A stretch of DNA of 64,000 nucleotides from Duganella sp. BuS-21 (GTDB taxonomy: Bacteria; Pseudomonadota; Gammaproteobacteria; Burkholderiales; Burkholderiaceae_D): positions 2,666,001-2,730,000 of the forward strand of contig CP097466.1 of assembly GCA_041874725.1 (NCBI GenBank), in the 5' to 3' direction. Shown here one piece after another: positions 44,103-59,267 of this stretch. The number at the start of each line of letters is the position of its first letter. The stretch's first letter is position 1. The notes under the pieces were generated by a model. It was given only the letters and a program-made list of their open reading frames with translations, was not told the DNA's origin and ran no database searches. The position numbers were made by a program, and so were the translations under genes.

Positions 44103-45884
44103 TTATTTGCCGGCGAAGCGCGCTTCGATTTCTTCCAGCGTCTTGCCCTTGGTTTCGGGCAGCAGGAAGGCGGCGGTGAGGAAGTACAGCAGCGTGGCGC
44201 CGGCCCACCAGAAGAACATGGTGGCGTAGCCGTACTGGCCGACGGTCGGCAGGAAGGTGGCGGCGATCATGGTCGAGACGAATTGATTGACCAGCAGCGC
44301 GATGCTCATGCCGTTGGAGCGGATGCGGGTCGGCATCAGCTCCGACAGCGCCAGCCACACGCAGACACCGGGACCGACGGCGAAGCCGGCCACGAACAGC
44401 GCCATCGCCAGCGCCACTTGCCAGCCGTGCGTGGTGGATGGCACGGCGGCGATGTCGGCGCGCTCGATGCGCAGCGGTGCGTCGGCGCCTTCGGCCGGAT
44501 CGGCGAAGGGATTCAGGTGTAGCTGGCGGAAGAAGACGCCGATCACGCTGTCCGGCTGCACGGTGTCTTCACGGCTCATCTTCAGCAGCGGCAGGGCGGC
44601 GTCGTCGCTGCGGCGCGTTTGCACGTTGGTGAACGGGCCGTAGGAGTAGGCCACGGTCAGCTGCTGCGGTGCGTTGTTGGCGGCGCCGAAGGATTTCAGG
44701 GTGTCGGCGTCCAGACGCAGCGCCAGGCTATCGGCTTGGACGTGGGATTGCAGTTGCGGACGCACGTCGCGCTGTTCGCCTTCGGCGCTGCGGAACAGTA
44801 GGCCGGCCGCCAGCAGGGCGGCGACGATACAGCCGGTGCCCAACATCAGCAGGAACTTGCGGCCCTTGCGGTCGACCAGCACCACGGCGACGATGGTCAT
44901 CAGGGCGTTCAGGACTTTCAGCGCGACGTCGCCGGCGTTGGCGGTGGCGCCGGGCAGGCCGGCCTGGTTCAGGATGTTGACCACGTAGGCCAGCACGGAG
45001 TTGATGCCGGTGGCCTGGTTCAGCGCCAGGATCAGGCAGGCCAGCAGGAAGGGCAGCATGTAGCGGCGGCTGAGCAGCGGATCGACGGCGCGCGGTGCGG
45101 CGGAGCCGGAGGCGGGAGCGGAGGCGGCAGGCAGTGCCTTCAGGATCTCGCGCAGCTCGTCCTCCGCTTCGGCGGCGGGACGGGTTTGCAGCAGGGCGAT
45201 GCGGGCTTCTTCGATGCGGCCACGGCGCGCCAGCCAGCGCGGCGACTCGGCCAGCAGCAGCGCGCCGGCGCTGAACACCACGCCCGGGGTCAAACACCAC
45301 CAGAAGATGCTGCGCCACGCATGATCCTTGGCCGCAAACACCGCTGCCGCACGTTCGCCTTCGGCCAGGTGCTGCGCCGCCACGGTGGCGCTTTCCACCG
45401 AGTGCGCCTGCATCAAGCCGATCACCGCCGCCGCCACCAGGCCGATGGTCAACAGCAGCTGGAACAAGGCCGCGCCGCGGCCGCGATGACGCGCATGCAG
45501 GCACTCGGCCAGGTAGAGCGGCACGATCACGCCGATCAAGCCGCCGCTCACGCCTTGCAGCAGGCGGCCCAGCAGCAGCGGCGTGTAGCCGTCGGCCAGC
45601 GCGATCAATGGAATACTGAGCGTGAACAGCACGCCGGACAACACCATCGCCCAACGACGGCCGATCCAGTCGGCCAGCGCACCGGCGAACAGCGAAGACA
45701 GCACGGAACCCAGCAGCACCGCCGCCACGATGAAACTCAATTGTTGTGCACTCAAGCGCCAGGCCACCGACGCGGTGGATTCCAGATAAGGCAGCGCGCC
45801 GGCGATGATGCCCACGTCGATCCCGTAAAGCAGTCCACCCATCCCTGCAATGAACAATAAGTATCCCATGGCGCGTGCTTGCAT
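44103..45884 (-). CDS. Sugar-porter MFS permease, probably for GalNAc
   Basis: A 593-residue, 12-helix permease of the sugar porter family: DVGIIAGALPYL, DWIGRRWAM, LAESPRWLARRGR and the C-terminal PETKGKTLEEIE are signature motifs. Between the helices that follow DRKGRKFLLM and precede the GPGVCVWLALSELMPTRIR segment there is an unusual insert of about 110 polar residues. The gene is last in the agaS-agaK-kbaZ-agaR-agaA operon, 11 bases after agaA, so the likely cargo is N-acetylgalactosamine released in the periplasm. That substrate is inferred from position only. Confidence 0.85.
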   Translation of the reverse strand: MQARAMGYLLFIAGMGGLLYGIDVGIIAGALPYLESTASVAWRLSAQQLSFIVAAVLLGSVLSSLFAGALADWIGRRWAMVLSGVLFTLSIPLIALADGYTPLLLGRLLQGVSGGLIGVIVPLYLAECLHARHRGRGAALFQLLLTIGLVAAAVIGLMQAHSVESATVAAQHLAEGERAAAVFAAKDHAWRSIFWWCLTPGVVFSAGALLLAESPRWLARRGRIEEARIALLQTRPAAEAEDELREILKALPAASAPASGSAAPRAVDPLLSRRYMLPFLLACLILALNQATGINSVLAYVVNILNQAGLPGATANAGDVALKVLNALMTIVAVVLVDRKGRKFLLMLGTGCIVAALLAAGLLFRSAEGEQRDVRPQLQSHVQADSLALRLDADTLKSFGAANNAPQQLTVAYSYGPFTNVQTRRSDDAALPLLKMSREDTVQPDSVIGVFFRQLHLNPFADPAEGADAPLRIERADIAAVPSTTHGWQVALAMALFVAGFAVGPGVCVWLALSELMPTRIRSNGMSIALLVNQFVSTMIAATFLPTVGQYGYATMFFWWAGATLLYFLTAAFLLPETKGKTLEEIEARFAGK

Positions 45885-45895
45885 CGAGTCTCCGG

Positions 45896-47002
45896 CTAGT
45901 TGGTGGTTAGGTCGATGGCTTCACCTTCAACGAAGACGGCCACCGGTTGTAATTCTGCGTTGAGCACCACAATGTCCGCCCAGGCGCCCGGCGCCAGGCG
46001 ACCGCGCTCGGTCTCGCCCAGGTAGTCGGCGGGATAGAGCGATAAACGGTTCGAGGCGTCGGCCAGCTCCAGCCCGAGGCCGACGAAGTTGCGCAGCGCC
46101 TGGTCCATGGTCAGCACACTGCCGGCCAGCGAGCCGGTGGCGAGACGCACGCAGCCCAGGCATTTGTAGACGCGCTGGCTGCCGAGGCCATACTCGCCGT
46201 CCGGCATGCCGGTGGCCGAGGTAGCGTCGGTGACGCCGTACAGGCGCGGAATCGCGCGCAGGGCGGCGCGGATCGCGCCCGGCTGCACGTGCTGCAGGTC
46301 GGGAATGATTTCCGCGTATTCCGCATGCGCCAGCGCTGCGCCGACGATGCCGGGCTTGTAGTGATTGAGGCCCGTCATGCCGTTGAACAGATGCGTGAAA
46401 CCGGCCGCGCCGGCTTCCAGCGCGGCCACGCCGTCTTCATAGCTGCCGTTGCTGTGGCCGACCTGCACGCGGATGCCCAGCGCATTCAGCTCCGGGATCA
46501 GCGCCAGGTGGCCGTTGACTTCCGTCGCCAGCGTCATGACGCGGATCGGCGCCAGTTCGTGATAGCTGTTGACCAGGTCCATGCTGCCCACCGCGATTGC
46601 GTCCGCCGGCTGCGCGCCCAGGCGGTGGATGCTGAGGAACGGACCTTCCAGGTGCACGCCCAGCATGCGCGCGGCGCCGGCCGGACGCTGCGCGACGCCG
46701 GGCGCCAGGCCGCGCAAGGCGCGCCGGATGGAGTTGTCGGTGGCGGTCATGGTGGTGCCCAGCATGGCGGTGGTGCCGTGCCTGGCGTGCGCGCGCGCCA
46801 CCGTGACGCCGGCGTCGCCGCCCTGCATGATGTCGACGCCGGCCGCGCCGTGCACGTGCAGGTCGACAAAGCCGGGCAGGATGGTCAGGGTGTGGTCCGC
46901 GCCCTGGTCTTCGCTGATGTCGAGGATACGTCCGCTTTGTTGGTCGAAGGTGATGCGGCCGTTGATCCAGCCGGCCGGGGTGAGTATGCGTCCAGTCAGC
47001 AT
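45896..47002 (-). CDS. agaA: N-acetylgalactosamine/N-acetylglucosamine-6-phosphate deacetylase
   Basis: This amidohydrolase removes acetate from the 6-phosphorylated amino sugar. The 368-residue product has HVHGAAGVDIM (metal histidines), HLEGPFLS (metal glutamate), VQVGHSNGSYED, HLFNGMTGLNHYKPG and DATSATGMPDGEY. By sequence alone NagA and AgaA are hard to separate; the setting with agaS, kbaZ and agaK indicates GalNAc-6-phosphate. The ATG at 47002 has GGA ten bases upstream and lies four bases after agaR. Confidence 0.9.
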   Translation of the reverse strand: MLTGRILTPAGWINGRITFDQQSGRILDISEDQGADHTLTILPGFVDLHVHGAAGVDIMQGGDAGVTVARAHARHGTTAMLGTTMTATDNSIRRALRGLAPGVAQRPAGAARMLGVHLEGPFLSIHRLGAQPADAIAVGSMDLVNSYHELAPIRVMTLATEVNGHLALIPELNALGIRVQVGHSNGSYEDGVAALEAGAAGFTHLFNGMTGLNHYKPGIVGAALAHAEYAEIIPDLQHVQPGAIRAALRAIPRLYGVTDATSATGMPDGEYGLGSQRVYKCLGCVRLATGSLAGSVLTMDQALRNFVGLGLELADASNRLSLYPADYLGETERGRLAPGAWADIVVLNAELQPVAVFVEGEAIDLTTN

Positions 47003-47006
47003 GGGG

Positions 47007-47774
47007 TCATTCCGCAATCAAAAGCTCGATGCCGGCTTCCAGCAGGCCGTCGCGGTATTCCGGGCTGATGCCGGCGTCGGTGACCACGGTGTGTACGCGG
47101 TCCAGCTGGACGATGCGGTGCAGGCTCACGCGGCCGAACTTGGAAGCGTCGGTCAGCACGATGATCTTTTTGGCCCGCTCCACCATCTTATGATTCAGGC
47201 TGGCTTCCGCCTCGTGATGGGTGGTGACGCCGAACTGCAAATCGAAACCATCGACGCCGAGGAACAGCTTGTCGAAGCTGTAGGCCTGCAGGCAGGCTTC
47301 GGCCTGCGTGCCCTGAATCGACAGCGACTGCTTGCGCAGCAGGCCGCCGGTCATGATCAGGTCCACGCCCGGCGCGTCGGCCAGCTCCCAGGCGATATTC
47401 AGGCCGTTGGTCATGACGGTGATGTTCTGCGCTTCGCGCAGGTGGCGCGCCAGCGAGATGGTGGTGGTGCCGGAATCGATGATGATGTTATCGCCCGGCT
47501 GCACCATGCGCGCGGCATAGGCGCCGATGCGCGCCTTTTGCTCGTGGTTGATGGCGTCCTTTTGCGGCACCGTGTGTTCGGTCGGCGGCGTGCGCGCCAG
47601 CGTGGCGCCGCCGTGGCTGCGCGTGGCCAGGCCCTGGGATTCCAGCGCACTGAGGTCGCTGCGGATGGTCACCGCTGAAACGCCCAGCTGGTCCACCAGT
47701 TCGTTGACCTGAACCGAGCCCTGTTGGGTGAGCGCCTGCAAAATGGTGGCGCGGCGTTGACTGGTATGTCGCAT
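47007..47774 (-). CDS. agaR: DeoR-family repressor of the GalNAc locus
   Basis: A 255-residue DeoR/GlpR-type regulator. The N-terminal winged helix (RRATILQALTQQGSVQVNEL, then VSAVTIRSDLSALESQGLATRSHGGA) binds DNA; the C-terminal DeoRC domain (IIDSGTTTISLARHL, then DKLFLGVDGFDLQFGVTTHHEAEASLN) senses a sugar phosphate. Its place within the aga operon and the seven CTTTC boxes between the two arms of the locus identify it as AgaR. The likely inducer is GalNAc-6-P or GalN-6-P, by analogy. Confidence 0.9.
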   Translation of the reverse strand: MRHTSQRRATILQALTQQGSVQVNELVDQLGVSAVTIRSDLSALESQGLATRSHGGATLARTPPTEHTVPQKDAINHEQKARIGAYAARMVQPGDNIIIDSGTTTISLARHLREAQNITVMTNGLNIAWELADAPGVDLIMTGGLLRKQSLSIQGTQAEACLQAYSFDKLFLGVDGFDLQFGVTTHHEAEASLNHKMVERAKKIIVLTDASKFGRVSLHRIVQLDRVHTVVTDAGISPEYRDGLLEAGIELLIAE

Positions 47775-47806
47775 GGCTGTGCTGATAATCTGTCAAAAAT
47801 GGCAGC

Positions 47807-49150
47807 TTAACAGATCGCGGCGGCGCTGCCAGCCGGTTCCGTGCCAACTTCGGCGGCGTTATGGTTGCAGGCGCGCGCGTATTGCGCCAGCAGGCGGCCG
47901 ATCTTGTGTTCGAGCAGGGCGTTGGCCTTGGCGGTCAGCTGGCCCTGCAGCACTTCCAGGTACTGTTCCGGCAGGTGTTGGCTCAGCAGCGACAGCGGAA
48001 TCTCCAATGCATCCAGGTTGGCGACCAGCTTGTCCACTGCAGCGACCACCGGCGCTTCGCCCCAGTAGTAGCGGCAGCGGTCGCTCAGGCCATAGCGGCG
48101 CAGCAGGCGCTGTTCGGCGCTGGTGCCGGGATAGTGTTTGGCCCAGTGCCTCGGCTGCGCCAGCATGGTTTCGTCGAGCACCTGCATCAGGCGCGAGGCC
48201 TGGCCGGCGGCGACCAGTTCCTGCTCGATCTGGCACAGCGCCACAAAGCCTTCGCGCAGGGCGAAGGTGGCGGCCGGGCCGACCTTGAGGATGGCGAAGT
48301 GGTCGCGCACCATCTGGTGCAGCGCGGTTTCGCGCTGGTAGTCGGTGGAGTGGGCCTCAAACACGATGCCGGGCTGGCCGGCCACGAATTCGGACAGCGT
48401 GGCCGCCTGCGCCGCGTCGTAGTGCTGGATGTGGGTGTGATCGAAGTCCACGCCCGGCTGCACCACCATGGCGATCACGCGGCGCCAGGCGCCGTGCAGC
48501 TTGTGCTCCATGAAGGCCTTGCGGTGCACGTCCAGTGTGCGGTGCGCGGCATCCGGCGAGGTGGGGGCGCCGGCTTGCGCCAGATTGGCCTCACCGCCCG
48601 GAATCGGCACTTCGGTGCCGATTACGTACACCGGCGGCGGCAGGCCGGCCTGCTGCGCCGCTGCTTCGGCGACGAGGCACAGGCGCGCCGAACGCGCGGC
48701 GATGGTTTCGTCGCTCAGGATTTGCGGATCGTCGGCGCAGCGCATGCTGCAATCGAGATGGATCTTGTGGAAGCCGGCCGCCGCGTAGGCGGCGATCAGG
48801 GTTTCCGCGTGCGCCATGGCGGTGGCCGCGTCCAGTCCCTGCCAGGTGTTGGGACCGAGGTGGTCGCCGCCCAGTACCAGCCGCTCCAGCGGAAAGCCCT
48901 GTTCGCGCGCCAGCGCCTGCACGCTGTCGACGAACTGCGGCGGCGTCATGCCGGTGTAGCCGCCGAACTGGTCGACCTGGTTCGATGTGGCCTCGACCAG
49001 CAGCACCGTGTCGTAGGTGGTGGCGACGCGCATGGCGGCGCGCAGCACGCTCGGGTGGCTGCAGCACACGCTATACAAGCCGGTGGCCTCGCCACGGCGG
49101 TGCGCGGCGATGATTTGCTGGACGGGGGACAGGGAATCGGTGGTCTTCAT
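47807..49150 (-). CDS. kbaZ: Tagatose-bisphosphate aldolase non-catalytic subunit / AgaZ-type protein
   Basis: A 447-residue protein of the GatZ/KbaZ/AgaZ family, recognisable from SVCCSHPSVLRAAM, LVEATSNQVDQFGGYTGMTPPQF, GGDHLGPNTWQ and HLDCSMRCADDP. In enteric bacteria the family stabilises the class II tagatose-1,6-bisphosphate aldolase; a tagatose-6-phosphate kinase role has also been considered for AgaZ. The catalytic aldolase subunit and a classical tagatose-6-P kinase are missing here. The ATG overlaps the agaK stop by four bases. Confidence 0.9.
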   Translation of the reverse strand: MKTTDSLSPVQQIIAAHRRGEATGLYSVCCSHPSVLRAAMRVATTYDTVLLVEATSNQVDQFGGYTGMTPPQFVDSVQALAREQGFPLERLVLGGDHLGPNTWQGLDAATAMAHAETLIAAYAAAGFHKIHLDCSMRCADDPQILSDETIAARSARLCLVAEAAAQQAGLPPPVYVIGTEVPIPGGEANLAQAGAPTSPDAAHRTLDVHRKAFMEHKLHGAWRRVIAMVVQPGVDFDHTHIQHYDAAQAATLSEFVAGQPGIVFEAHSTDYQRETALHQMVRDHFAILKVGPAATFALREGFVALCQIEQELVAAGQASRLMQVLDETMLAQPRHWAKHYPGTSAEQRLLRRYGLSDRCRYYWGEAPVVAAVDKLVANLDALEIPLSLLSQHLPEQYLEVLQGQLTAKANALLEHKIGRLLAQYARACNHNAAEVGTEPAGSAAAIC

Positions 49151-50097
49151 GGTCGGTCGCTTAGTTGTTGACGGGCGAGGAGGGCTGCGCCGCGCGCGCC
49201 GCCGGCATCGCCGAAGGTTGGCGGCAGCACGGGCGGCGTGCGCACGCCGGAGAACAGGTGGCGGCTCATCGCCGCCGGCAGTTTTTCATACAGGTGCGCC
49301 AGCTGCGACAGGCCGCCGCCCAGCACGATGGCGTGCGGGTCGAGCGTGATCACCAGGGTGGCCAGCGCGTGCGCCAGCAGGTCGAGGTGCACGTCCAGCG
49401 TGCGCTGCGCGATGGCGTTGCCGCCTTGTGCGCGTGCGACGATGGCCAGCGGCGTTTCGTCGCCGGCGCCGAAGTGGCGGTACATCTGCTGCATGCCGGG
49501 GCCGGAGACGTAGCGCTCCAGGCAGCCGTGCCGGCCGCACGGACAGTCGATCAGCGGCAGGCCGTGCGACGCCAGCAGCGAAGCGGCCAGCGGCCAGTGG
49601 CCCCATTCGCCGGCCACGCCGTTGGAGCCGCGCATCAGGCGGCCGTTGACGCAGTAGCCGCCGCCGGCGCCGGTGCCGATGATGGCGCCGAACATGGTGG
49701 CCATGCCGTCGGCCGCGCCGCCCTGCGCTTCGGACAGCGCGAAGCACTGGCAGTCGTTGCCGACGGCGAGCGGGCGTTGCAGGGCTTCTTCCAGCGATTG
49801 CACCACCAGGCGGCCGTTCAGCGCCGGCACGTTGGAGCTGACCTGGCGGCCGGTGACGCTGTCGATCACGCCCGGCAGCCCGATGCCGACCGGCGCGCGC
49901 AGGCCCAGTGCATCGTCGGCGCGCAGGATCAGGCCCTGCATGGCGGCGATGAAGCCGGCGAAGTCGGTGCCCGGCGTGGCGATGCGTTCGCGGTGGACTT
50001 CGCGCAGTTGCGCGCCATCTTCGGCGTAGGCCACCAGCTCGATCTTGGTGCCGCCGATGTCGATGCCGTGGTAGCCGCGCTGCTTAGAATTCGTCAT
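49147..50097 (-). CDS. agaK: ROK-family kinase, probable GalNAc kinase
   Basis: A 316-residue sugar kinase. The ATP-phosphate loop is GIDIGGTKIELVAY; the ROK zinc motif is CPCGRHGCLERYVSGPG; and GTGAGGGYCVNGRLMRGSNGVAGEWGHW carries the catalytic region. Its position between agaS and kbaZ and the presence of a permease that does not phosphorylate its cargo indicate that it makes GalNAc-6-phosphate, as AgaK does in Shewanella. It overlaps agaS by 14 bases and kbaZ by four. Confidence 0.88.
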   Translation of the reverse strand: MTNSKQRGYHGIDIGGTKIELVAYAEDGAQLREVHRERIATPGTDFAGFIAAMQGLILRADDALGLRAPVGIGLPGVIDSVTGRQVSSNVPALNGRLVVQSLEEALQRPLAVGNDCQCFALSEAQGGAADGMATMFGAIIGTGAGGGYCVNGRLMRGSNGVAGEWGHWPLAASLLASHGLPLIDCPCGRHGCLERYVSGPGMQQMYRHFGAGDETPLAIVARAQGGNAIAQRTLDVHLDLLAHALATLVITLDPHAIVLGGGLSQLAHLYEKLPAAMSRHLFSGVRTPPVLPPTFGDAGGARGAALLARQQLSDRP

Positions 50098-51220
50098 GGC
50101 GATAGATGGTGACGCCTTGAACCACGCGGTTCACGATGCCGCCCGTGAAAGGGTTGTCGGGACGCAGCTGCAGTTGCGCCGACTGGTGCAGCGCGTACTG
50201 CTGCGCCATCAGCAGCCACAGAGGCGCCAGCCAGGCGTCCGGCCACGATGGCGTGTCGATGCCGAAGTCGCCGCCGGCGCCGATGGTCAGTACGCGCGCG
50301 GCCACCTGGTCGCGGCGCAGTTCTTCCAGCAGATCGTGTTCGTAGCGGCGCGACAGCGGGTCGGCGCTGCGGAACAGCAGCACCAGCGTGTCGTGCGTGA
50401 CGGCCGCTTTCGGGCCGTGGCGGAAACCGAGTGCGCTGTTCGCCATCGTCATCACGCTGCCGGCGGTCAGTTCCATGATCTTCAGCGCGGCTTCCTTGGC
50501 CAGCCCTTCCAGCGGGCCGCTGCCCAGGTAGATCACGCGCGAGACGCGCAGCGTCGCCAGTTCGGCCACCGGCGCGGCCCATTGCGCCGATGCCTGTTCG
50601 CCGATGTCGGCCAGGGTGTTCAAGCGCCCCGGTTCGAAGTCCGGGTCCAGCACGGCCAGCGCCGCCAGCAGCATGCAGGTGAAGCTGCTGGTCATGGCGA
50701 AGCCGCGGTCGCAACTGGCGGCCGGCATCAGCAGGTTGAGCGTCGCTTCGTCGTCCACGCTTTGCGTGGCGAGCGCGCCGTCCGGATTGCAGGTGATGTT
50801 GAGGAAGCGCGCATGCGGCACCAGGTCGCGCACCAGCTGCACGGCGGCCGTGCTTTCAGGGCTGTTGCCGCTGCGGGCGAACGACACCAGCAAGGTCGGA
50901 CCGCCGTTTTCCAGATACAGGGCAGGGTGGGTCAACAGGCTGGTGGTCGAAATGGCGCGCACCTGGCAGGGCCACGCGGCGTTGATTTCGTCCGCGATGA
51001 TTTCGCCGACATAGGCCGAGCTGCCGGCGCCGGTGAGAATCACGCGCAAGTGCGGGTCGCGCAGTTTGTCGCCGAGGAAGTCGGCGATGCGGCTTTGCTC
51101 GGCACTCAGCTGCGCCGCCAGCGCGCGCCACAGGGCGGGTTGGTGGGCGATTTCTTCTGCGGTATCGAGGCCGCCGATATCGCGCCAGTCGGTGGTCTTA
51201 CGCTGGAATAAGGTAGTCAT
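50084..51220 (-). CDS. agaS: GalN-6-phosphate deaminase/isomerase AgaS (SIS domains)
   Basis: AgaS converts galactosamine-6-phosphate to tagatose-6-phosphate plus ammonia. The 378-residue protein has two SIS domains: VILTGAGSSAYVGEIIADEI with SFARSGNSPESTAAV, and YLGSGPLEGLAKEAALKIMELTAG with GFRHGPKAAV. The start LFQRKTTDWRDIGGLDTAEEI is typical of AgaS. An open frame extends upstream but the ATG at 51220 fits the family. A CTTTCG box lies right before this ATG, so the repressor may also cover the translation start. First gene of the catabolic arm. Confidence 0.9.
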   Translation of the reverse strand: MTTLFQRKTTDWRDIGGLDTAEEIAHQPALWRALAAQLSAEQSRIADFLGDKLRDPHLRVILTGAGSSAYVGEIIADEINAAWPCQVRAISTTSLLTHPALYLENGGPTLLVSFARSGNSPESTAAVQLVRDLVPHARFLNITCNPDGALATQSVDDEATLNLLMPAASCDRGFAMTSSFTCMLLAALAVLDPDFEPGRLNTLADIGEQASAQWAAPVAELATLRVSRVIYLGSGPLEGLAKEAALKIMELTAGSVMTMANSALGFRHGPKAAVTHDTLVLLFRSADPLSRRYEHDLLEELRRDQVAARVLTIGAGGDFGIDTPSWPDAWLAPLWLLMAQQYALHQSAQLQLRPDNPFTGGIVNRVVQGVTIYRHDEF

Positions 51221-51251
51221 CGAAAGATCTTTTATGTTGAATGTCAGGCAA

Positions 51252-51280
51252 AGAGTAAAGTTTAATTTTCGAAAAGTCAA
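51252..51280 (-). promoter_or_regulatory. Sigma70-type promoter of the agaS arm
   Basis: On the minus strand: TTGACT (51280-51275), 17 bases, TACTCT (51257-51252). An AgaR-type box lies five bases before the -35 and another about 25 bases after the -10. Confidence 0.65.
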
Positions 51281-51424
51281 ATACGAAAGTAAAAAGAAAG
51301 ATTGTCCGGCAGCGACATCGGGACTGATGTGTCACTTTTGCCACGTAAACGAAAGTTTGTTGTTCGGTCAACCACTGATTCGAAAGGTTTTACGGATTTT
51401 TTTGAATTATCTTCTTTCTTTTTA

Positions 51425-51453
51425 TTGACCTTACTTACTTTTATTTCTAGAGT
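51425..51453 (+). promoter_or_regulatory. Sigma70-type promoter of the GH31 arm
   Basis: TTGACC (51425-51430), 17 bases, TAGAGT (51448-51453). An AgaR-type box ends seven bases before the -35 and another begins 21 bases after the -10, mirroring the agaS promoter. Confidence 0.65.
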
Positions 51454-51493
51454 AAATGCATCGCAACGAAGTTTCTTTCGAAATCAAGGTCAT

Positions 51494-54400
51494 ATGAAAC
51501 AAGTTCTAACGATCACAGCCTTGCTCGCCAGCACGCCTTTGCTGGCCGCCCCGATCGGCAACCTGCGCTCCATTACCCCGGCTGCGGACCAGCAGTGGCA
51601 GCTGGTGACCGACACCGGCGCCCAGATACAGCTTAGTCTTCCGCGCGCCGATGTGTTGCATATCTGGGCCGGTCCCAAGTCCGGCCTGACCGGCGCCGGC
51701 GACAAGGCCGCGCCAATTGTGGTGGCGACGCCGGCGGCCACGGTGGAGCACAGCATCAGCGAGCAGGCCGACCATATCCTGATTCGCACGCCGGCCCTTA
51801 TCCTGCGCATCGACCGCAAGCCGCTGCGTTTCAGCCTGTTCCGCGCCGGCGACGCGCAGCCGCTGTGGCGCGAGGTGCAGCCGCTGGAGCTGGGCGACAA
51901 GCAAAGCGTGCAGACCCTGTCGAGCGACAAGGGCGAGCGCTTCTTCGGCGGCGGGCAGCAGAACGGCCGCTATGAATTCAAGGGCAAGCAGCTGCAGGTA
52001 TCGTACTCCGGTGGCTGGGAAGAGGGCGACCGTCCGAGTCCTGCACCGTTCCTCATGAGCTCACGCGGCTGGGGCATGTTGCGTAATACCTGGTCCGATG
52101 GTAGTTATGACCTGCGCCAGAACGATCAGATCTCGCTGGAACATGACGAGGCGCGCTTCGATGCCTACTACTTCGTCGGCAAGGACGTGCGCGATGTATT
52201 GGCGCGCTACACCGAGTGGACCGGCCGCGCGCGCATGCTGCCGCGCTGGGCGCTGGAGTACGGCGATGCCGATTGCTACAACGATGGCGACAACGTCAAG
52301 AAGCCTGGCACTGTGCCGAAAGGCTGGAGCGACGGCCCGACCGGCAAGACGCCGGACGTGGTGGAGTCGGTGGCGCGCAAGTATCGCGAGCACGATATGC
52401 CGGGTGGCTGGATTTTGCCGAACGACGGCTACGGCTGCAGCTACACGGCGCTGCCTGAAACGGTGCAGGGCCTGGCGAAGTATGGCTTCCGCACCGGCCT
52501 GTGGACCGAGAACGGCGTTGAGAAAATGGCGTGGGAAGTGGGCACCGCCGGCACCCGCGCGCAGAAGCTGGATGTGGCGTGGACCGGCAAGGGCTATCAG
52601 TTCTCGCTGGATGCGAACAAGTCGGCGTATGACGGCATTTTGAATCATTCCGAAGGCCGTCCGTTCATCTGGACCGTGATGGGCTGGGCGGGTACGCAGC
52701 GCTACGCCGTCACCTGGACCGGCGATCAGAGCGCCAGCTGGGACTATATCCGTTGGCACGTGCCGACCTTGATTGGTTCCGGCTTGTCCGGCCAGGCGTA
52801 TGCCACCGGCGATGTGGATGCGATCTTCGGCGGAAGTCCGGAGACCTATACGCGCGATTTGCAGTGGAAGAGTTTTACGCCGGTGCTGATGGGGATGTCC
52901 GGCTGGGCGGCGGCGGAGCGCAAGCACCCATGGTGGTTTGCCGAGCCGTATGTGAGCATCAATCGCCGCTATCTGAAGTTGAAGATGCGCCTGACGCCAT
53001 ATATGTACACGCTGATGCGCGAGGCCGAACAAAGCGGTGCGCCGCTGGTGCGTGGGCTGATGTGGGATAACGCCGATGATCCGGCGGCTTATACCGAGGC
53101 TTACAAGTATCAATATCTGCTGGGACGCGATCTGCTGGTGGCGCCGGTGTATCGCAGCCAGGCGGTGAGCCAGGGCTGGCGGCGCGACATCCATCTGCCG
53201 CAGGGGCAATGGTTTGATTACTGGGATGGCCGGCAGGCCACGGCGGGCAAGGGCGGACGCGATATCGATCTGGCGGTGACGTTGGACAAGCTGCCGGTGT
53301 TTGTGCGCGCCGGTGCGATTCTGCCGATGTATCCGGAGATGCTGTACGACGGCGAGAAGCCGAAGGATGTGCTGACGCTGGACTTGTATCCGCAAGGTGC
53401 TTCCGAGTTCACGCTGTATGAGGACGACGGCAATACGCGGCGCTATCAGGAAGGTGCGTTCAGCCAGCAGGTGATTCGCATGAACGCGGCGGCTGGCGGC
53501 GTGCAGGTGGATGTTGAGCCGGTAGTGGGTAGCTACGACGGCCAGCCGCCGCGCCGCGCCTATGCACTGCGCATGTTGACGCGTCAGCGCCCGGCCGCCG
53601 TGAGCGTCGGCACCGCCGCCAATGCGGCCGTGCTGCCACCGCTGGCCGACCGCGCCGCGTTCGATGCGGCTGCCGAGGGCTGGTATTTCGACGCCGCCGA
53701 GCGTCTGGGCACGCTGCACGTCAAGACGGCGAGCCGGGACATTCGCCAGCCGCTGCGCTTCAGCGTGCAGGCAGCTCCCGCCGCCGCGCCGACCGCCATC
53801 GCCGTCGCCGACGACGCATTCCCGGCCGCGCCAGCGTTGGGCCGCGCCATTCCTGTCGACGCCATGATGGTGATGAACCGCCCATCCGAAGAAAGCGGCT
53901 ACCCGATTGAAAACGCCTTCGATAACAATCCCGCCACCTGGTTCCGCACCACGCGCAGCCCGGCAGTGCAGGGCGGGCCGCACGAATGGGTGATCGGCTT
54001 CACCGAGCGCCGCCTGATCGACGGCATCGAACTCGCGCCGCGCAACGACCAGCACTGGAAGAACGGCCAGATCCGCGACTACGAAATCTACATGGGCGAC
54101 AACAACGGCGACTGGGGCAAACCGATCAAGCGCGGCCAGCTGAAACTGGAGCAGGGCGTGCAGTCGATCAGCTTCCCGCCCGCCGTCGGCCGCCTGCTGC
54201 GCTTCCGCGTGTTGAGCACCCAGAATCCCGAAGGCGAGGCGGCGGCGACGACCGACCCGATGGTCACCGCAGCCGGCGCACCCGCAGCGCGCGCCTTCAA
54301 CGCCTCAGCCGCCAGCGAAGTGGCGCCGATCACGCTGTCCGCATTCCGCGTGATGGCCTACCAGCCGAAGGAAGGCCCGGAACAACAGCAATTCCTGTCC

Positions 54401-54808
54401 GACCTTGCCCTGCCGAAGAGCGTGGGCCGCGACAAGCCCGCACGCGGCAAGGAGATGCGCATGAACGGCCTGTGGTTCCGCAAGGGTCTCGGCGTAGGAC
54501 CGAACAGCCGCATCGACCTGCAACTGGCGGGCAACTGGAACCTGCTGCGCGCCGATCTGGGCGTGGACGACAGCTGCCGCACTGCCGGCGGCCTGCAGTT
54601 CCAGGTCTGGAGCGGCGAGCGCCTGCTGTACGACAGCGGCCTGATTACCGCACCGGCCGTGGTCAAGCCCGAGATCGACGTGCGCGGACTAAGCCAGATC
54701 AGCCTGCGCACCCTCGGCGCACGCGGTGCCAGGCCGGATCAGGTATGCGGCAACTGGGCCAATGCAGTCCTGCTGGGCACGGAGGGCAGTACCGTCAGCC
54801 CACGCTAA
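51494..54808 (+). CDS. Secreted GH31 glycosidase, probable alpha-N-acetylgalactosaminidase, with CBM32-like and NPCBM modules
   Basis: A 1104-residue exported enzyme. Parts: signal peptide (1-19), beta-sandwich to about 220 (RFFGGGQQNGRYEF), GH31 barrel about 225-600, C-terminal beta domains (about 605-700), an F5/8C (CBM32-like) module at about 790-905 (IENAFDNNPATWF), and an NPCBM/NEW2 module at about 935-1095. The segments GWAGTQRY and WTGDQSASWDYIRWH, with Asp411 as the likely acid/base, and GDVDAIFGGSPETYTRDLQW match the GH31 subgroup known for alpha-GalNAc-ase activity rather than alpha-glucosidases. Nucleophile candidates are Asp360 or Asp373. The start is fixed by the signal peptide and AAGG; an upstream in-frame extension covers the operators and was rejected. 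Confidence 0.85.
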   Translation: MKQVLTITALLASTPLLAAPIGNLRSITPAADQQWQLVTDTGAQIQLSLPRADVLHIWAGPKSGLTGAGDKAAPIVVATPAATVEHSISEQADHILIRTPALILRIDRKPLRFSLFRAGDAQPLWREVQPLELGDKQSVQTLSSDKGERFFGGGQQNGRYEFKGKQLQVSYSGGWEEGDRPSPAPFLMSSRGWGMLRNTWSDGSYDLRQNDQISLEHDEARFDAYYFVGKDVRDVLARYTEWTGRARMLPRWALEYGDADCYNDGDNVKKPGTVPKGWSDGPTGKTPDVVESVARKYREHDMPGGWILPNDGYGCSYTALPETVQGLAKYGFRTGLWTENGVEKMAWEVGTAGTRAQKLDVAWTGKGYQFSLDANKSAYDGILNHSEGRPFIWTVMGWAGTQRYAVTWTGDQSASWDYIRWHVPTLIGSGLSGQAYATGDVDAIFGGSPETYTRDLQWKSFTPVLMGMSGWAAAERKHPWWFAEPYVSINRRYLKLKMRLTPYMYTLMREAEQSGAPLVRGLMWDNADDPAAYTEAYKYQYLLGRDLLVAPVYRSQAVSQGWRRDIHLPQGQWFDYWDGRQATAGKGGRDIDLAVTLDKLPVFVRAGAILPMYPEMLYDGEKPKDVLTLDLYPQGASEFTLYEDDGNTRRYQEGAFSQQVIRMNAAAGGVQVDVEPVVGSYDGQPPRRAYALRMLTRQRPAAVSVGTAANAAVLPPLADRAAFDAAAEGWYFDAAERLGTLHVKTASRDIRQPLRFSVQAAPAAAPTAIAVADDAFPAAPALGRAIPVDAMMVMNRPSEESGYPIENAFDNNPATWFRTTRSPAVQGGPHEWVIGFTERRLIDGIELAPRNDQHWKNGQIRDYEIYMGDNNGDWGKPIKRGQLKLEQGVQSISFPPAVGRLLRFRVLSTQNPEGEAAATTDPMVTAAGAPAARAFNASAASEVAPITLSAFRVMAYQPKEGPEQQQFLSDLALPKSVGRDKPARGKEMRMNGLWFRKGLGVGPNSRIDLQLAGNWNLLRADLGVDDSCRTAGGLQFQVWSGERLLYDSGLITAPAVVKPEIDVRGLSQISLRTLGARGARPDQVCGNWANAVLLGTEGSTVSPR

Positions 54809-54827
54809 GCCAGACAAAGTTTTCACA

Positions 54828-54833
54828 CGAAAG
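54828..54833. promoter_or_regulatory. Single CTTTCG box before the TonB receptor gene
   Basis: CGAAAG lies in the 97-base gap between the GH31 and receptor genes, just ahead of a GC-rich hairpin (CCCTC-CC / GG-GAGGG, near 54837-54858). It could be a further AgaR contact, but a lone five-base core may be chance. Confidence 0.3.
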
Positions 54834-54905
54834 AGCCCCTCTCCGGACCGGGGAGGGACTGTTGCAGCCTCACGATAACAAACCATGTACAAAAGGGAGA
54901 GAACC

Positions 54906-57866
54906 ATGCAGATGAAAAAATTGGTAACCGCGATGATGGCGGCGGGTCTGGCTTCGGGCGCAATCGTAGCCAAAGCCGCCGAGGAAGCGGAAGACAAGAT
55001 CGTGCGCGTCGAGGTGACCGGTTCGAGCCTCAAGCGCATCAACGCTGAAACGGCGTCGCCGGTGCAGGTGATCGACGCCAAGCAGATCGAGAACATGGGC
55101 GCGCGCACGTTGCTGCAAGTGCTGGACAACCTGCCGGCGGCGCGTCCGGCGCAGCAGGACTTCCGCTCCATGTTCACCGGCTCGGACGGTGCTTCGCAGG
55201 CCAATCTGCGCGGCCTCGGTGCGCAAGGCACGCTGGTGCTGCTGAACGGACGCCGCCTGTCGTTCTACGGTGCCCCGGCCGGCTTCCAGACCATGTTCGT
55301 CAACATCGACGCGATTCCCGCCGCCGCCATCGAGCGCATGGAAATCCTGACCGACGGCGCCTCGGCGGTCTATGGTTCCGACGCGGTGGCCGGCGTGATC
55401 AACGTCATCACCAAGAAGAGCTTCCAGGGCCTGGAAGCGCGCGGCAACGCCGACTTCTCGCGCGACGTGAAATCCTACGGCGAACGCCAGGGCAGCTTGA
55501 TCTACGGCCATGGTGACTTGAACAGCGACGGCTACAACGTCTACGGCTCGGTCAACGTCTACCAGCGCGACCGCATCTCTTCCGCCGACACCTACCTGAA
55601 ACGTCCGGCTGCTTTCTACGACAACAATCCATCCTTCGTGCCGGGCTTCCGCGTCGGCACCGGCAGCGAGCCGGGTGTGGTCAATCCGGGCACCTTCTTC
55701 GTGTTCGACAAAGCCAACAACAATGCCCGCACCCAGCGCGCGGTGAAGGGTTGCAGCACCTCGATCACCGAGGCCTCGGGCACCCGCTGCGTGTGGAACT
55801 CGCTGCCGTATGCGCTCGACACCGGCCCGACCTCGGACCGCGTCACCGCCTTCCTGGCAGGTCGCGTGAAGCTGGGCGACGATCTGGAAGGGTTTGCCGA
55901 AACCGCGCTGACCCAGATCAAGCTGCGCGGCGAGAACGGCCCGCGCAGCTTCAACAGCGGCAGCACCAACAACTGGTTCGCCCGTAATACCGGCACCAAG
56001 CTGAATACCTTCGCCATTCCTTACCTGGGCCCGAACAACAGCTACCTGAAAGGCAAGCTCGATGCCGACATGGTGGCCAAGATGGGTGGCGCGGCGGGCC
56101 TTAACTACGTCATGCAGGACGCCACCGGTCACTTCGGCCAGACCAACAAGGACCAGAGTTATCGCGCCCTGGCCGGTCTGCGCGGCAGCATCGGCGGCGG
56201 CTGGGACTTTGAAACGGCGTTGAGCGTGGCGGGCAGCCATTCCACGCTGTACCAGACCATCAACATCAACACCGCCGGTTTCGCCAAGGCCTTCGGTCCG
56301 TTCACCACCGATCCGGTCACCGGCCGCAGCTATATCTCCGACAATCCGGCTTACAAGTTCGGCGAGATCAGCGAATCGAATGCCGCGCTGCTGCGCCAGG
56401 CCTATCCAACCTTCGACATCCAGTCGTGGACCAAGCTGATTACCTGGGACGGCAAGGTGGAAGGCACGCTGTTCAAGCTCGGCGAACGTGAAGTGCGCGC
56501 CGCCTTCGGCGCCAGCGTGATGCGCGAGAGCTTCTACACGCCCGGCAATCCCGACGCGGCCAACGGCCTGATTACGCAGCAGGGCGGCTCGTGGTTCGAC
56601 GGCCAGCGCAACATCGGCGCCGTGTTCGGCGAGGTGGTGGTGCCGCTGACCGACACGCTGGAGCTGAACGCCGCCGCGCGTCTCGACAAATATCCGCACT
56701 TCGACGCCAACCTGGCGCCGAAGGTCGGGGTGCAATGGCGCGCGCGGCCGGAGCTGATGGTGCGCGGCACGTACTCCGAAGGCTTCCGCGCGCCCAACCT
56801 GGCCGAATCGGGCAGCGGTGGCGTGTTTGCGCAGGTCGGCGGTATCCGCGACACCGTGCGCTGCGACGAAACCAATGCCATGGCGCGCCTGTTGATGAAG
56901 TCCGTCACGCCGGCCGAAGCGGAGCTGGGCAAGAACCTGTTGAACTCCAACTGCTCGACCACCGTCGGCGGCCTGACGCCGCCGAACCCGCAACTGCGTC
57001 CGGAAAAAGCCAAGATCTCCACCTTCGGCCTGGTGATGCAGCCGGTGAAGGACGTCAGCATTTCGCTCGACTACTGGTTCGTCTATCGCCGCAACGAGAT
57101 CGTGCGCCAGGACTTCAATGAGCTGTTCACGGAGCTGGTGGATAAATACGGTCCTGGCCTGTCCGGCACCAGCGCCGCCATCCGCAATCCGATCAGCGAC
57201 GCGGACCGGGGCAATATGGCGGCGGTGGCGGCCATGTGCAATAACGCGGCCAATGCTGCGGCTTGCGCCGGCGGCATTCCGGGCTACTCGGTCGGTAATA
57301 TCGGCGGCCTGATTAACTCCTACTCGAATCGTGGCCGCACGCTGCTCGACGGTTTCGATATCGATGCGCGCACCCGCTTCTCGCTGGGCGACATGGGGCG
57401 CCTGAATACCGGCATCTCGGCCACCATCCGCAAGCGCGAGACCTACAACAGCGAAGACGGCAGCGGCTTCACCGGCAACAACGTGGGTTATTACGATTCG
57501 CCGCGCATCCGCGCCACCTTCAATGCCGACTGGGCCTACCGCAATTTCGTCACCAGCCTGTTCGTCAACTACACCGGCAAGACCAAATGGGCCTACGGCG
57601 AGTGGGACACCGACAACGCGCCAGGCACTTGCATGGCGGCCGGCGTGGAGATGCCGAAAGACCTGTGCGGCGGCGCGCCTTCCTACACCACGGTCAACCT
57701 GGGCTTCAACTGGAAACCGATGAAGAACCTGGACCTGGGCCTGAACATCAAGAATGTGCTGAACAAGCGTCCTTACTACGATCCTAACGGCTGGGAAGGT
57801 TACAACCACAGCCAGAATCTGTTCGGCCGCCAGTACGCCTTCTCGGCCAGCTACAAGTTCTTCTGA
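54906..57866 (+). CDS. TonB-dependent outer-membrane receptor of the GalNAc locus
   Basis: A 986-residue receptor: signal peptide (about 1-25, cut near VAKAAEE), a TonB-box-like stretch IVRVEVTGSSLKR, plug domain (about 40-165; ANLRGLGAQGTLVLLNGRR and MEILTDGASAVYGSDAVAGVINVIT are typical), then a 22-strand barrel ending in phenylalanine (ASYKFF). Three cysteine pairs in loops may form disulfides. Placed between two alpha-GalNAc-ases, it is likely to take up GalNAc-containing oligosaccharides rather than a siderophore. The ATG at 54906 has GGGAGAG upstream. Confidence 0.9.
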   Translation: MQMKKLVTAMMAAGLASGAIVAKAAEEAEDKIVRVEVTGSSLKRINAETASPVQVIDAKQIENMGARTLLQVLDNLPAARPAQQDFRSMFTGSDGASQANLRGLGAQGTLVLLNGRRLSFYGAPAGFQTMFVNIDAIPAAAIERMEILTDGASAVYGSDAVAGVINVITKKSFQGLEARGNADFSRDVKSYGERQGSLIYGHGDLNSDGYNVYGSVNVYQRDRISSADTYLKRPAAFYDNNPSFVPGFRVGTGSEPGVVNPGTFFVFDKANNNARTQRAVKGCSTSITEASGTRCVWNSLPYALDTGPTSDRVTAFLAGRVKLGDDLEGFAETALTQIKLRGENGPRSFNSGSTNNWFARNTGTKLNTFAIPYLGPNNSYLKGKLDADMVAKMGGAAGLNYVMQDATGHFGQTNKDQSYRALAGLRGSIGGGWDFETALSVAGSHSTLYQTININTAGFAKAFGPFTTDPVTGRSYISDNPAYKFGEISESNAALLRQAYPTFDIQSWTKLITWDGKVEGTLFKLGEREVRAAFGASVMRESFYTPGNPDAANGLITQQGGSWFDGQRNIGAVFGEVVVPLTDTLELNAAARLDKYPHFDANLAPKVGVQWRARPELMVRGTYSEGFRAPNLAESGSGGVFAQVGGIRDTVRCDETNAMARLLMKSVTPAEAELGKNLLNSNCSTTVGGLTPPNPQLRPEKAKISTFGLVMQPVKDVSISLDYWFVYRRNEIVRQDFNELFTELVDKYGPGLSGTSAAIRNPISDADRGNMAAVAAMCNNAANAAACAGGIPGYSVGNIGGLINSYSNRGRTLLDGFDIDARTRFSLGDMGRLNTGISATIRKRETYNSEDGSGFTGNNVGYYDSPRIRATFNADWAYRNFVTSLFVNYTGKTKWAYGEWDTDNAPGTCMAAGVEMPKDLCGGAPSYTTVNLGFNWKPMKNLDLGLNIKNVLNKRPYYDPNGWEGYNHSQNLFGRQYAFSASYKFF

Positions 57867-57905
57867 TCCGCTACAATGAAACACAACCTCCGAGGTATAG
57901 AACTG

Positions 57906-59267
57906 ATGGACAAGCAATTTAATCGACGCGACTTCCTCGCCACCGGCGCGGCGCTGGCCGGCGGCTTGCTGCTGCCGAAGGCCTACGCCGCCACGCGCCA
58001 GCGGGTGCGTATCGGCTTGATCGGCACCGGCATGCGCGGCCAGGTGCTGCTGCAGGAGCTGCTGCGCCGCGACGACGTGGATCTGGTGGCGCTGTGCGAC
58101 ATCGAGCCCATCATGCTGGGCAAGGCGCTCAAGCAGGTGGAGAAGTTCAACAAGCCGAAGCCGAAGACCTTCGGCGAGGACCGCGATCCGCAGGCCTACA
58201 AGCGCATGCTGGACGCCGGCGCGCTGGATGGCGTGATCATCGCCACGCCGTGGGAATGGCATGCGCCGATGGCCATCGCCGCCATGCAGGCCAAGGTGGC
58301 GGTCGGCTGCGAAGTGGTGGCCGGCGTGACCTTGCAGGATCACTGGGATGTGCTGAACACCCAGCTGAAAACGCAGACGCCGTATATGCTGCTGGAGAAC
58401 GTGTGCTTCCGACGCGATGTGATGGCGGTGCTGCAGATGGTGCGCGCCGGCGTGTTCGGTGAGTTGGTGCACTTGCAGGGCGGCTACCAGCACGACCTGC
58501 GCGCGGTGAAGTTCAACAGCGGCGATCCGGCCAAGCCGTATGGCGGTGGCGTGGAGTATGGTGCCAAGGGCTGGTCGGAGGCGCGCTGGCGCACCGAGCA
58601 CTCGGTGCAGCGCAATGGCGAGCTGTATCCAAGCCACGGCATCGGGCCGTGTGCGATGTACACCAACATCAATCGCGGCAATCGCTTCACGCGCATCAAC
58701 GCCTTTGCCACCAAGGCGCGCGGCCTGCACGACTACGTGGTCAAGCAGGGCGGCGCTGGTCATCCGAATGCCAAGACCAGCTTCAAGCTGGGCGACGTGG
58801 TGACCACCACTTTGGCCTGCGAGAACGGCGAGACCATCATCCTGCAGCACGATACCTCGCTGCCGCGTCCTTATTCGTTGGGCTTCCGCGTGCAGGGTAC
58901 GGACGGCCTGTGGATGGATTTGAACCATTCCATTCATATCGAAGGCAAGAGCAAGCCGCACCAGTGGGACGACTTCCAGGCCTGGCAGGACAAGTACGAA
59001 CATCCGTTGTGGAAGAAGTATGCCAAGACGGCGGAGGGGGCTGGGCACGGCGGCATGGATTTCTTTGTGATCCATTCGTTCATCGAAGCGTTGAAGGCGC
59101 AGGCGCCGATGCCGATCGATATTTACGATGCGGTGAGCTGGAGCGCCATCACGCCGTTGTCGGAGCAGTCGATCGCGCAGAACTTCCAGACGCTGGACTT
59201 CCCTGACTTCACCAACGGCCAGTGGAAGACGCGCAAGCCGATCTTCGCTTTCGACGACCGCTATTAA
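57906..59267 (+). CDS. GH109 family alpha-N-acetylgalactosaminidase (NAD-dependent, Tat-exported)
   Basis: A 453-residue protein of the Gfo/Idh/MocA fold that closely follows GH109: GLIGTGMRGQVLL (NAD site, about 38-50), ATPWEWHAPMAIAAMQA, ENVCFRRDVMAVLQMVRAG, FGELVHLQGGYQHDLRAVKF, YPSHGIGP, INRGNRFTRINAFATKARGL and AEGAGHGGMDFFVIH. GH109 enzymes remove terminal alpha-GalNAc by a redox-assisted mechanism with bound NAD. The Tat signal NRRDFLATGAALAGG fits export of a protein folded around its cofactor. ATG 57906 has GAGG upstream; the alternative ATG at 57876 would add ten residues before the Tat motif. Confidence 0.9.
   Translation: MDKQFNRRDFLATGAALAGGLLLPKAYAATRQRVRIGLIGTGMRGQVLLQELLRRDDVDLVALCDIEPIMLGKALKQVEKFNKPKPKTFGEDRDPQAYKRMLDAGALDGVIIATPWEWHAPMAIAAMQAKVAVGCEVVAGVTLQDHWDVLNTQLKTQTPYMLLENVCFRRDVMAVLQMVRAGVFGELVHLQGGYQHDLRAVKFNSGDPAKPYGGGVEYGAKGWSEARWRTEHSVQRNGELYPSHGIGPCAMYTNINRGNRFTRINAFATKARGLHDYVVKQGGAGHPNAKTSFKLGDVVTTTLACENGETIILQHDTSLPRPYSLGFRVQGTDGLWMDLNHSIHIEGKSKPHQWDDFQAWQDKYEHPLWKKYAKTAEGAGHGGMDFFVIHSFIEALKAQAPMPIDIYDAVSWSAITPLSEQSIAQNFQTLDFPDFTNGQWKTRKPIFAFDDRY

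What the first reader, a model, noticed from the sequence alone, without database searches (positions are those of the whole stretch)
44103..59267. A self-contained alpha-GalNAc utilisation locus in a betaproteobacterium
Nine genes in two divergent arms form a logical path: TonB receptor, two alpha-GalNAc-ase-type hydrolases, MFS permease, ROK kinase, deacetylase, AgaS, KbaZ/AgaZ and an AgaR-type repressor. No beta-hexosaminidase or chitinase is present, so the target is probably terminal alpha-GalNAc, as in mucin-type O-glycans, A-type glycans or fungal galactosaminogalactan. GalNAc pathways of this kind are described in Shewanella and enteric bacteria; pairing one with TonB uptake and both GH31 and GH109 enzymes in an Oxalobacteraceae-like genome is, as far as I know, not well described.
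Basis: partly seen in the sequence, partly recalled or inferred. Interest (0 to 1): 0.85.

Follow-up and report, generated by a model that had tools for sequence, protein, structure and literature searches.

The report
Bacterial locus for eating alpha-GalNAc sugars
A betaproteobacterium carries a nine-gene kit for taking up and eating GalNAc, the sugar that starts mucus-type glycans; related bacteria carry the same kit, and published growth tests of one carrier fit it.

Summary
The nine genes are real and placed as described, and the alpha-GalNAc reading is well supported. GH31 is closest to the solved Enterococcus GH31 alpha-N-acetylgalactosaminidase and GH109 to the solved alpha-GalNAc-ase 2ixa. 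AgaR passes its cut-off, and seven CTTTC boxes lie in the promoter. All nine genes recur in 62 of 80 named relatives. One carrier, Rugamonas violacea CCM 8940, is published as GalNAc-positive and GlcNAc-negative and has one AgaS.

Added here: (1) No tagatose-bisphosphate aldolase (AgaY) was recognised in this genome or in 35 others with the locus, so AgaZ probably acts as a tagatose-6-phosphate 4-epimerase. (2) A second, parallel aga core lies beside PL8 and GH88 genes. (3) 33 of 80 relatives add a DUF3472 protein related to the di-glutamate mucinase HC7, which points to truncated O-glycoproteins; none was found in this genome.

The parts have precedents, so this is a new variant of a known kind. 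No enzyme was assayed.

The parts
44103..45884 (-). Inner-membrane sugar permease (sugar porter MFS, AgaP-like), with an insertion of roughly 110 residues
   Evidence: TIGR00879 242.1 bits, over cut-off 237.8; Pfam Sugar_tr in two stretches; insert read
45896..47017 (-). NagA-like GalNAc-6-phosphate deacetylase (AgaA)
   Evidence: TIGR00221 220.2 bits, just under cut-off 225.65; PDB matches are GlcNAc-6-P deacetylases; paralogue of a separate NagA, 61% identity
47007..47774 (-). AgaR repressor (DeoR family)
   Evidence: NF040755 AgaR 336.7 bits, cut-off 260
47807..49150 (-). AgaZ (PF08013); proposed tagatose-6-phosphate 4-epimerase
   Evidence: TIGR02810 591.4 bits, cut-off 568.8; all seven residues named for E. 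coli GatZ (C20, E44, D87, H88, E171, H257, K279) fall at those numbers in chain 2fiq and are identical here (alignment, counted by hand)
49147..50097 (-). ROK sugar kinase (AgaK)
   Evidence: PF00480; best PDB matches are N-acetylglucosamine kinases; below every NCBIfam cut-off
50084..51220 (-). AgaS, galactosamine-6-phosphate deaminase/isomerase (SIS domains)
   Evidence: TIGR02815 407.9 bits, under cut-off 529.2; best PDB match 3c3j, 272 bits; start
51222..51493 (.). Divergent promoter with seven CTTTC/GAAAG boxes (candidate AgaR sites) at 51222, 51285, 51296, 51351, 51382, 51414, 51475
   Evidence: 7 against 1.36 expected, reached in 0 of 5000 shuffles; highest count among 272-base stretches taken every 10 bases through the window; 457 against 106.3 over 79 related loci
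51494..54808 (+). GH31 alpha-N-acetylgalactosaminidase with signal-like N-terminus, F5/8-type C and NPCBM domains
   Evidence: Best PDB match 6m76, 375.7 bits; the Asp at codon 52571 aligns with the Asp changed to Asn or Ala in 7f7r/7f7q; domains
54885..57866 (+). TonB-dependent outer-membrane receptor
   Evidence: PF00593 and PF07715
57876..59267 (+). GH109 N-acetylgalactosaminidase with Tat signal (start possibly 57906)
   Evidence: PF21252 283.5 bits and TAT_signal; 2ixa alpha-N-acetylgalactosaminidase 506 bits over 424 residues, GHGG motif kept; the only PF21252 match in the genome

Best explanation
This is an AgaR-controlled alpha-GalNAc utilisation locus. Small alpha-GalNAc-bearing glycans or glycopeptides, most likely truncated (Tn-type) O-glycoprotein fragments, enter through the TonB receptor. 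In the periplasm GH31 and Tat-exported GH109 release GalNAc, the MFS permease carries it inward, and AgaK, AgaA and AgaS turn it into GalNAc-6-P, GalN-6-P and tagatose-6-P. AgaZ then epimerises tagatose-6-P at C4 to fructose-6-P, so no tagatose-6-P kinase or tagatose-bisphosphate aldolase is needed. Shown by sequence: gene content, conservation, boxes, catalytic residues, no AgaY recognised. Supported by the published phenotype of a carrier: GalNAc use. Inferred: cell location, each enzyme's specificity, the epimerase step, the O-glycoprotein source.
For: GH31 matches the GH31 alpha-GalNAc-ase chains 6m76/7f7q/7f7r at 372-376 bits against 185 for the next distinct GH31, with the mutated Asp position kept. 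GH109 matches 2ixa at 506 bits. AgaR is over its cut-off, and CTTTC boxes are enriched here and in relatives. All nine genes in 62 of 80 loci. Phenotype: the 11 R. violacea strains are GalNAc+, GlcNAc-; type strain = L050, nine open genes, one AgaS at E<=1e-40. Separate nag genes (NagA over cut-off; NagB-II-like, under cut-off) exist elsewhere in the genome. No AgaY recognised: the one PF01116 protein of the genome is a fructose-bisphosphate aldolase (TIGR01521 594 bits, cut-off 496.35; tagatose aldolase model 212.4 against 443.55) beside pyruvate kinase and phosphoglycerate kinase genes. Of 35 other genomes with the locus, 26 have one such protein (each match 972-975 bases long, like the own one; not named one by one), 8 none and 1 a fragment under the cut-off. 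E. coli GatZ and KbaZ have fructose-6-P/tagatose-6-P C4 epimerase activity (PMC11907403, passages). O-glycoprotein link: DUF3472 in 33 of 80 relatives, related to HC7, a di-glutamate mucinase acting on Tn and T mucins, two glutamates invariant in the 20 aligned; B. theta GH31 acted on Tn-rich mucin.
Against: No enzyme here has been assayed. AgaS, AgaA and AgaK are below their specific model cut-offs, and AgaK and AgaA are nearest to GlcNAc enzymes in the PDB. Three of five Duganella strains were GalNAc-negative on Biolog (PMC12401772, passages) and Massilia antarctica strains were negative (PMC9028926, passages); their genotypes were not examined. The genome has a PF00365 phosphofructokinase that might phosphorylate tagatose-6-P; PfkB kinases and class I aldolases were not searched. 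This genome has no match to DUF3472 (a search whose controls also rang nowhere) or to M60 peptidase, so it would depend on fragments made by others, and 47 of 80 relatives also lack DUF3472 within the stretch held. GH109 enzymes can act on beta-GalNAc too (PMC10154618, passages).
Confidence: 0.75

Rival explanations
1. The route ends as in the textbook E. coli scheme: a general phosphofructokinase phosphorylates tagatose-6-P, and fructose-bisphosphate aldolase, helped by AgaZ as chaperone, cleaves tagatose-1,6-bisphosphate.
For: A PF00365 protein and a class II fructose-bisphosphate aldolase are in the genome; the NCBIfam name of AgaZ is non-catalytic aldolase subunit.
Against: No GatY/KbaY-type partner recognised in this genome or in 35 others with the locus; 8 of the 35 (Lysobacter, Vulcaniibacterium, Stenotrophomonas) have no class II aldolase match at all yet keep AgaZ in the operon. 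E. coli GatZ and KbaZ are active epimerases. Class I aldolases were not searched.
Confidence: 0.15
2. The locus mainly serves GlcNAc or mixed amino sugars; the GalNAc names follow from distant similarity.
For: AgaA and AgaK are nearest to GlcNAc-6-P deacetylases and GlcNAc kinases among solved structures; AgaA is 61% identical to the separate NagA.
Against: AgaR, AgaZ, GH31 and GH109 are GalNAc-side genes; a separate nag set exists; R. violacea is GlcNAc-negative and GalNAc-positive.
Confidence: 0.06
3. The natural source is not O-glycoprotein but another alpha-GalNAc polymer, such as fungal galactosaminogalactan, Pel, or bacterial surface glycans.
For: Two alpha-GalNAc-ases do not tell what GalNAc was attached to. 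GH109 in B. theta preferred blood group A.
Against: No GH114 endo-galactosaminidase found (the family rang in 2 of 14 control genomes). The B. theta GH31 acted only on the mucin among three substrates tested, and a HC7-related DUF3472 is the commonest extra gene that I identified in relatives.
Confidence: 0.3

Closest known systems
Shewanella aga (GalNAc) pathway: agaP, omp-Aga, agaA-II, agaK, agaS (PMC2996990, passages; Leyn 2012 recalled, not held)
   Same: Kinase-plus-permease route instead of PTS, an outer-membrane protein, AgaS; AgaR boxes with CTTTC (recalled from Leyn 2012).
   Different: Here both GH31 and GH109 alpha-GalNAc-ases are built in and no AgaY was recognised; whether Shewanella loci hold these was not examined.
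E. coli aga/gam cluster (content recalled)
   Same: AgaR, AgaZ, AgaS and a NagA-like deacetylase.
   Different: E. coli uses PTS transport and KbaY (recalled); here MFS plus ROK kinase, TonB receptor and hydrolases, no KbaY.
B. theta mucin locus BT4240-50 with BT3169-GH31 (PMC11992087, abstract and passages)
   Same: GH109 alpha-GalNAc-ase, outer-membrane import, MFS, GalNAc kinase; a GH31 acting on Tn-rich mucin in the same organism.
   Different: SusC/D pair, a different kinase type, GH2 and M60 peptidase there; GH31 lies outside that locus. Here one TonB receptor, no SusD, ROK kinase, full aga core in place.
PF08013 tagatose-6-phosphate 4-epimerases (Agrobacterium enzyme and E. coli GatZ/KbaZ, as told in PMC11907403)
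   Same: AgaZ keeps the residues listed for GatZ and stands without a GatY partner.
   Different: Here the upstream route is GalNAc; activity untested.

Membership tests
Proteobacterial aga (GalNAc) regulon | AgaR repressor | tested here: met
   NF040755 336.7 bits, cut-off 260
Proteobacterial aga (GalNAc) regulon | CTTTC boxes upstream of aga genes (motif recalled from Leyn 2012) | tested here: met
   7 against 1.36, 0 of 5000 shuffles; 66 of 79 related loci with at most 5 of 200 shuffles reaching the count
Proteobacterial aga (GalNAc) regulon | AgaS-family deaminase | tested here: inconclusive
   TIGR02815 is the best family but 407.9 bits is under the 529.2 cut-off; best PDB match is 3c3j
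Proteobacterial aga (GalNAc) regulon | GalNAc kinase and GalNAc-6-P deacetylase specificity | not testable with these tools
   Families fit; specificity needs assays
Proteobacterial aga (GalNAc) regulon | Tagatose-bisphosphate aldolase AgaY/KbaY (feature of the E. coli form, recalled) | tested here: not met
   One PF01116 protein in the genome, a fructose-bisphosphate aldolase; at most one per genome in 35 relatives
GH31 alpha-N-acetylgalactosaminidases (Nag31 type) | Closest to solved GH31 alpha-GalNAc-ase, mutated Asp position kept | tested here: met
GH31 alpha-N-acetylgalactosaminidases (Nag31 type) | Activity on alpha-GalNAc | not testable with these tools
   needs assay
GH109 | GH109 C-terminal domain and the histidine-glycine loop | tested here: met
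   PF21252 283.5 bits; loop aligned with 2ixa
PF08013 tagatose-6-P 4-epimerase | Metal and catalytic residues proposed for GatZ | tested here: met
   alignment to 2fiq against residues listed
PF08013 tagatose-6-P 4-epimerase | Epimerase activity | not testable with these tools
   needs assay
B. theta-type mucin utilisation locus | SusD partner of the outer-membrane receptor | tested here: not met
   No SusD family among the ten proteins scanned
B. theta-type mucin utilisation locus | Secreted mucinase (M60 or other) | tested here: inconclusive
   No M60 match in genome; no DUF3472 match, but that search had no positive control; DUF3472 present in 33 of 80 relatives

The most novel reading that the evidence does not exclude
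A widespread but unnamed proteobacterial system for eating Tn-type O-glycoproteins: a DUF5077-DUF3472 di-glutamate mucinase (in 33 of 80 relatives examined), TonB import of glycopeptides, periplasmic GH31 and GH109, and a short GalNAc route that ends at fructose-6-phosphate through AgaZ as a stand-alone C4 epimerase, against its name as an aldolase subunit. The core has a parallel copy wired to glycosaminoglycan breakdown, so one catabolic cassette serves two glycan sources.
Probability: 0.5. Interest if true: 0.65.

Novelty: new variant of a known kind. Interest (0 to 1): 0.52.

Why it matters
It gives a function to a locus whose GH31 carries only generic names in the named rows of the 120 listed (TIM-barrel, DUF5110 or NPCBM protein, glycosyl hydrolase, alpha-glucosidase) and which is found in Duganella, Rugamonas, Massilia, Janthinobacterium, Roseateles-group, Lysobacter and Stenotrophomonas genomes. 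It makes the role of AgaZ/GatZ/KbaZ directly testable in organisms with no recognised aldolase partner. It also ties DUF3472 to alpha-GalNAc utilisation, a lead for new mucin-cutting enzymes.
Full report
What is there. The window is part of a 6.49 Mb single-contig genome. Six minus-strand genes (44103-51220: permease, AgaA, AgaR, AgaZ, AgaK, AgaS) and three plus-strand genes (51494-59267: GH31, TonB receptor, GH109) diverge from one promoter. The GH31 is closest among named proteins to those of Rugamonas and Duganella (90% identity). AgaS matches at identical coordinates under two handles show that the genus group of this genome includes Duganella sp. CF402, Duganella radicis and Rugamonas aquatica, so the organism is a Duganella/Rugamonas-type member of the Oxalobacteraceae (inference).

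The hydrolases. The GH31 matches the Enterococcus-type GH31 alpha-GalNAc-ase chains at 372-376 bits over about 660 residues, twice the score of the next distinct GH31 in the PDB. The Asp changed to Asn and Ala in chains 7f7r and 7f7q is Asp here (codon at 52571). The protein also has F5/8-type C and NPCBM domains. The GH109 matches 2ixa over 424 residues and has a Tat signal; it is the only GH109 C-terminal domain found in the genome. In B. theta, the GH31 acted on de-sialylated mucin only, mainly Tn, while the GH109 preferred blood group A (PMC11992087, passages).

Regulation. Seven CTTTC/GAAAG boxes lie in the 272-base divergent region against 1.36 expected, reached in none of 5000 shuffles; no other 272-base stretch, taken every 10 bases through the window, holds more. 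Upstream of agaS in 79 relatives there are 457 boxes against 106.3 expected; 66 of 79 stand out singly (at most 5 of 200 shuffles), and two have fewer than three boxes. That CTTTC is the AgaR core is recalled from Leyn 2012.

Conservation. A scan with a GH31 alignment gave 225 relatives, of which the best 80 were kept, so the sample leans to close relatives. All nine genes were found in 62 of 80, and AgaR, Z, K, S and GH31 in 77 of 80; GH109 in 72, AgaA in 72, TonB in 70, MFS in 66. Some losses are stretch or contig ends, others replacements. Carriers span Duganella, Rugamonas, Massilia, Janthinobacterium, Roseateles/Paucibacter/Pelomonas, Lysobacter, Pseudoxanthomonas and Stenotrophomonas. 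Among 100 genomes (own included), 45 of the 60 of its genus have an AgaS at E<=1e-40 and 0 of 40 from other families do; 30 have the locus-1 type (66% identity or more), 8 a locus-2 type (51-56%) and 15 a third type (45-47%), some genomes having two types.

Phenotype. The 11 strains of Rugamonas violacea, type strain CCM 8940, used GalNAc and not GlcNAc on Biolog plates (PMC8552646, passages). Locus L050 comes from that type-strain assembly (JAEMNU), has all nine genes in open frames, and the genome has one AgaS. On the other side, three of five Duganella strains were GalNAc-negative (PMC12401772, passages) and Massilia antarctica was negative (PMC9028926, passages); I could not check their genotypes.

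The end of the route. The only PF01116 protein in the genome passes the fructose-bisphosphate aldolase model (594 bits, cut-off 496.35), fails the tagatose-bisphosphate one (212.4, cut-off 443.55), and sits beside pyruvate kinase and phosphoglycerate kinase genes. In 35 other genomes with the locus (35 of the 80, chosen by me for spread), 26 have one such protein, 8 none, 1 a fragment under the cut-off. The 26 were not named one by one; each match is 972-975 bases long, like the own one. The 8 are Lysobacter, Vulcaniibacterium and Stenotrophomonas. So no GatY-type partner for AgaZ was recognised in any of the 36. AgaZ keeps the seven residues named for E. coli GatZ, an enzyme shown to turn fructose-6-P into tagatose-6-P (PMC11907403, passages). 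A phosphofructokinase match is present in 34 of 36 genomes, so a kinase route is not excluded, and class I aldolases were not searched.

A second core. At about 2448.6-2455.7 kb of the genome lies the same order S-K-Z-R-A-P, 49-64% identical, next to a PL8 lyase, GH88, LacI and another TonB receptor. A similar neighbourhood was seen in the seven other type-2 genomes that I fetched (of nine known): PL8 in 6 of 7 (two at 40% identity), GH88 at least in part in 6 of 7 (L107 and L112 are one genome; L116 ends before GH88 would lie, L113 starts at a contig end). The own PL8 is nearer to a hyaluronate lyase model than to chondroitinase AC but under both cut-offs, so chondroitin is an inference from the GalNAc core.

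Verdict. What is added: the likely aldolase-free ending, the published phenotype, the parallel core and the mucinase link. The separate parts have precedents, so I rate it a new variant of a known kind.

Noticed in passing
L020 (genome 2438000-2457900), 1029-17653: Second aga core with the same gene order, beside PL8 lyase, GH88, LacI regulator and a TonB receptor; only two CTTTC boxes upstream of its agaS.
   Followed up: yes
L028:19376-20728 and 32 other related loci: DUF5077-DUF3472 protein related to the HC7 mucinase recurs in alpha-GalNAc loci; DUF3472 proteins are also reported in centipede venoms by transfer from bacteria (PMC7864903, passages).
   Followed up: partly
L028:16351-19386, L034, L044, L060 and others (26 of 80): Second TonB receptor type with a CarboxypepD_reg domain joins or replaces the main receptor.
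   Followed up: partly
window 44103-45884: The sugar permease carries a soluble-looking insertion of roughly 110 residues (about residues 367-480), function unknown; the locus-2 copy aligns over 572 residues.
   Followed up: no
L114 8.2 kb, L115 9.9 kb: Third AgaS type with AgaZ and an AgaR-like regulator; no match to the locus-2 kinase, deacetylase or permease in the stretch.
   Followed up: no
L101 (JAHREJ010000011.1): Record titled Bacillus subtilis holds a Stenotrophomonas-like copy of all nine genes: probably a mislabelled or contaminated assembly.
   Followed up: no
L022 (genome 1972000-1991000), 6618-11024: Separate nag set: NagA over cut-off, NagB-II-like protein (under cut-off) and sugar ABC transporter parts, next to each other.
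   Followed up: partly
window 59343-60260: Patatin-like phospholipase directly downstream of GH109; among the 80 loci it was matched only in Duganella and Rugamonas records and one Oxalobacteraceae record (AB_14).
   Followed up: no
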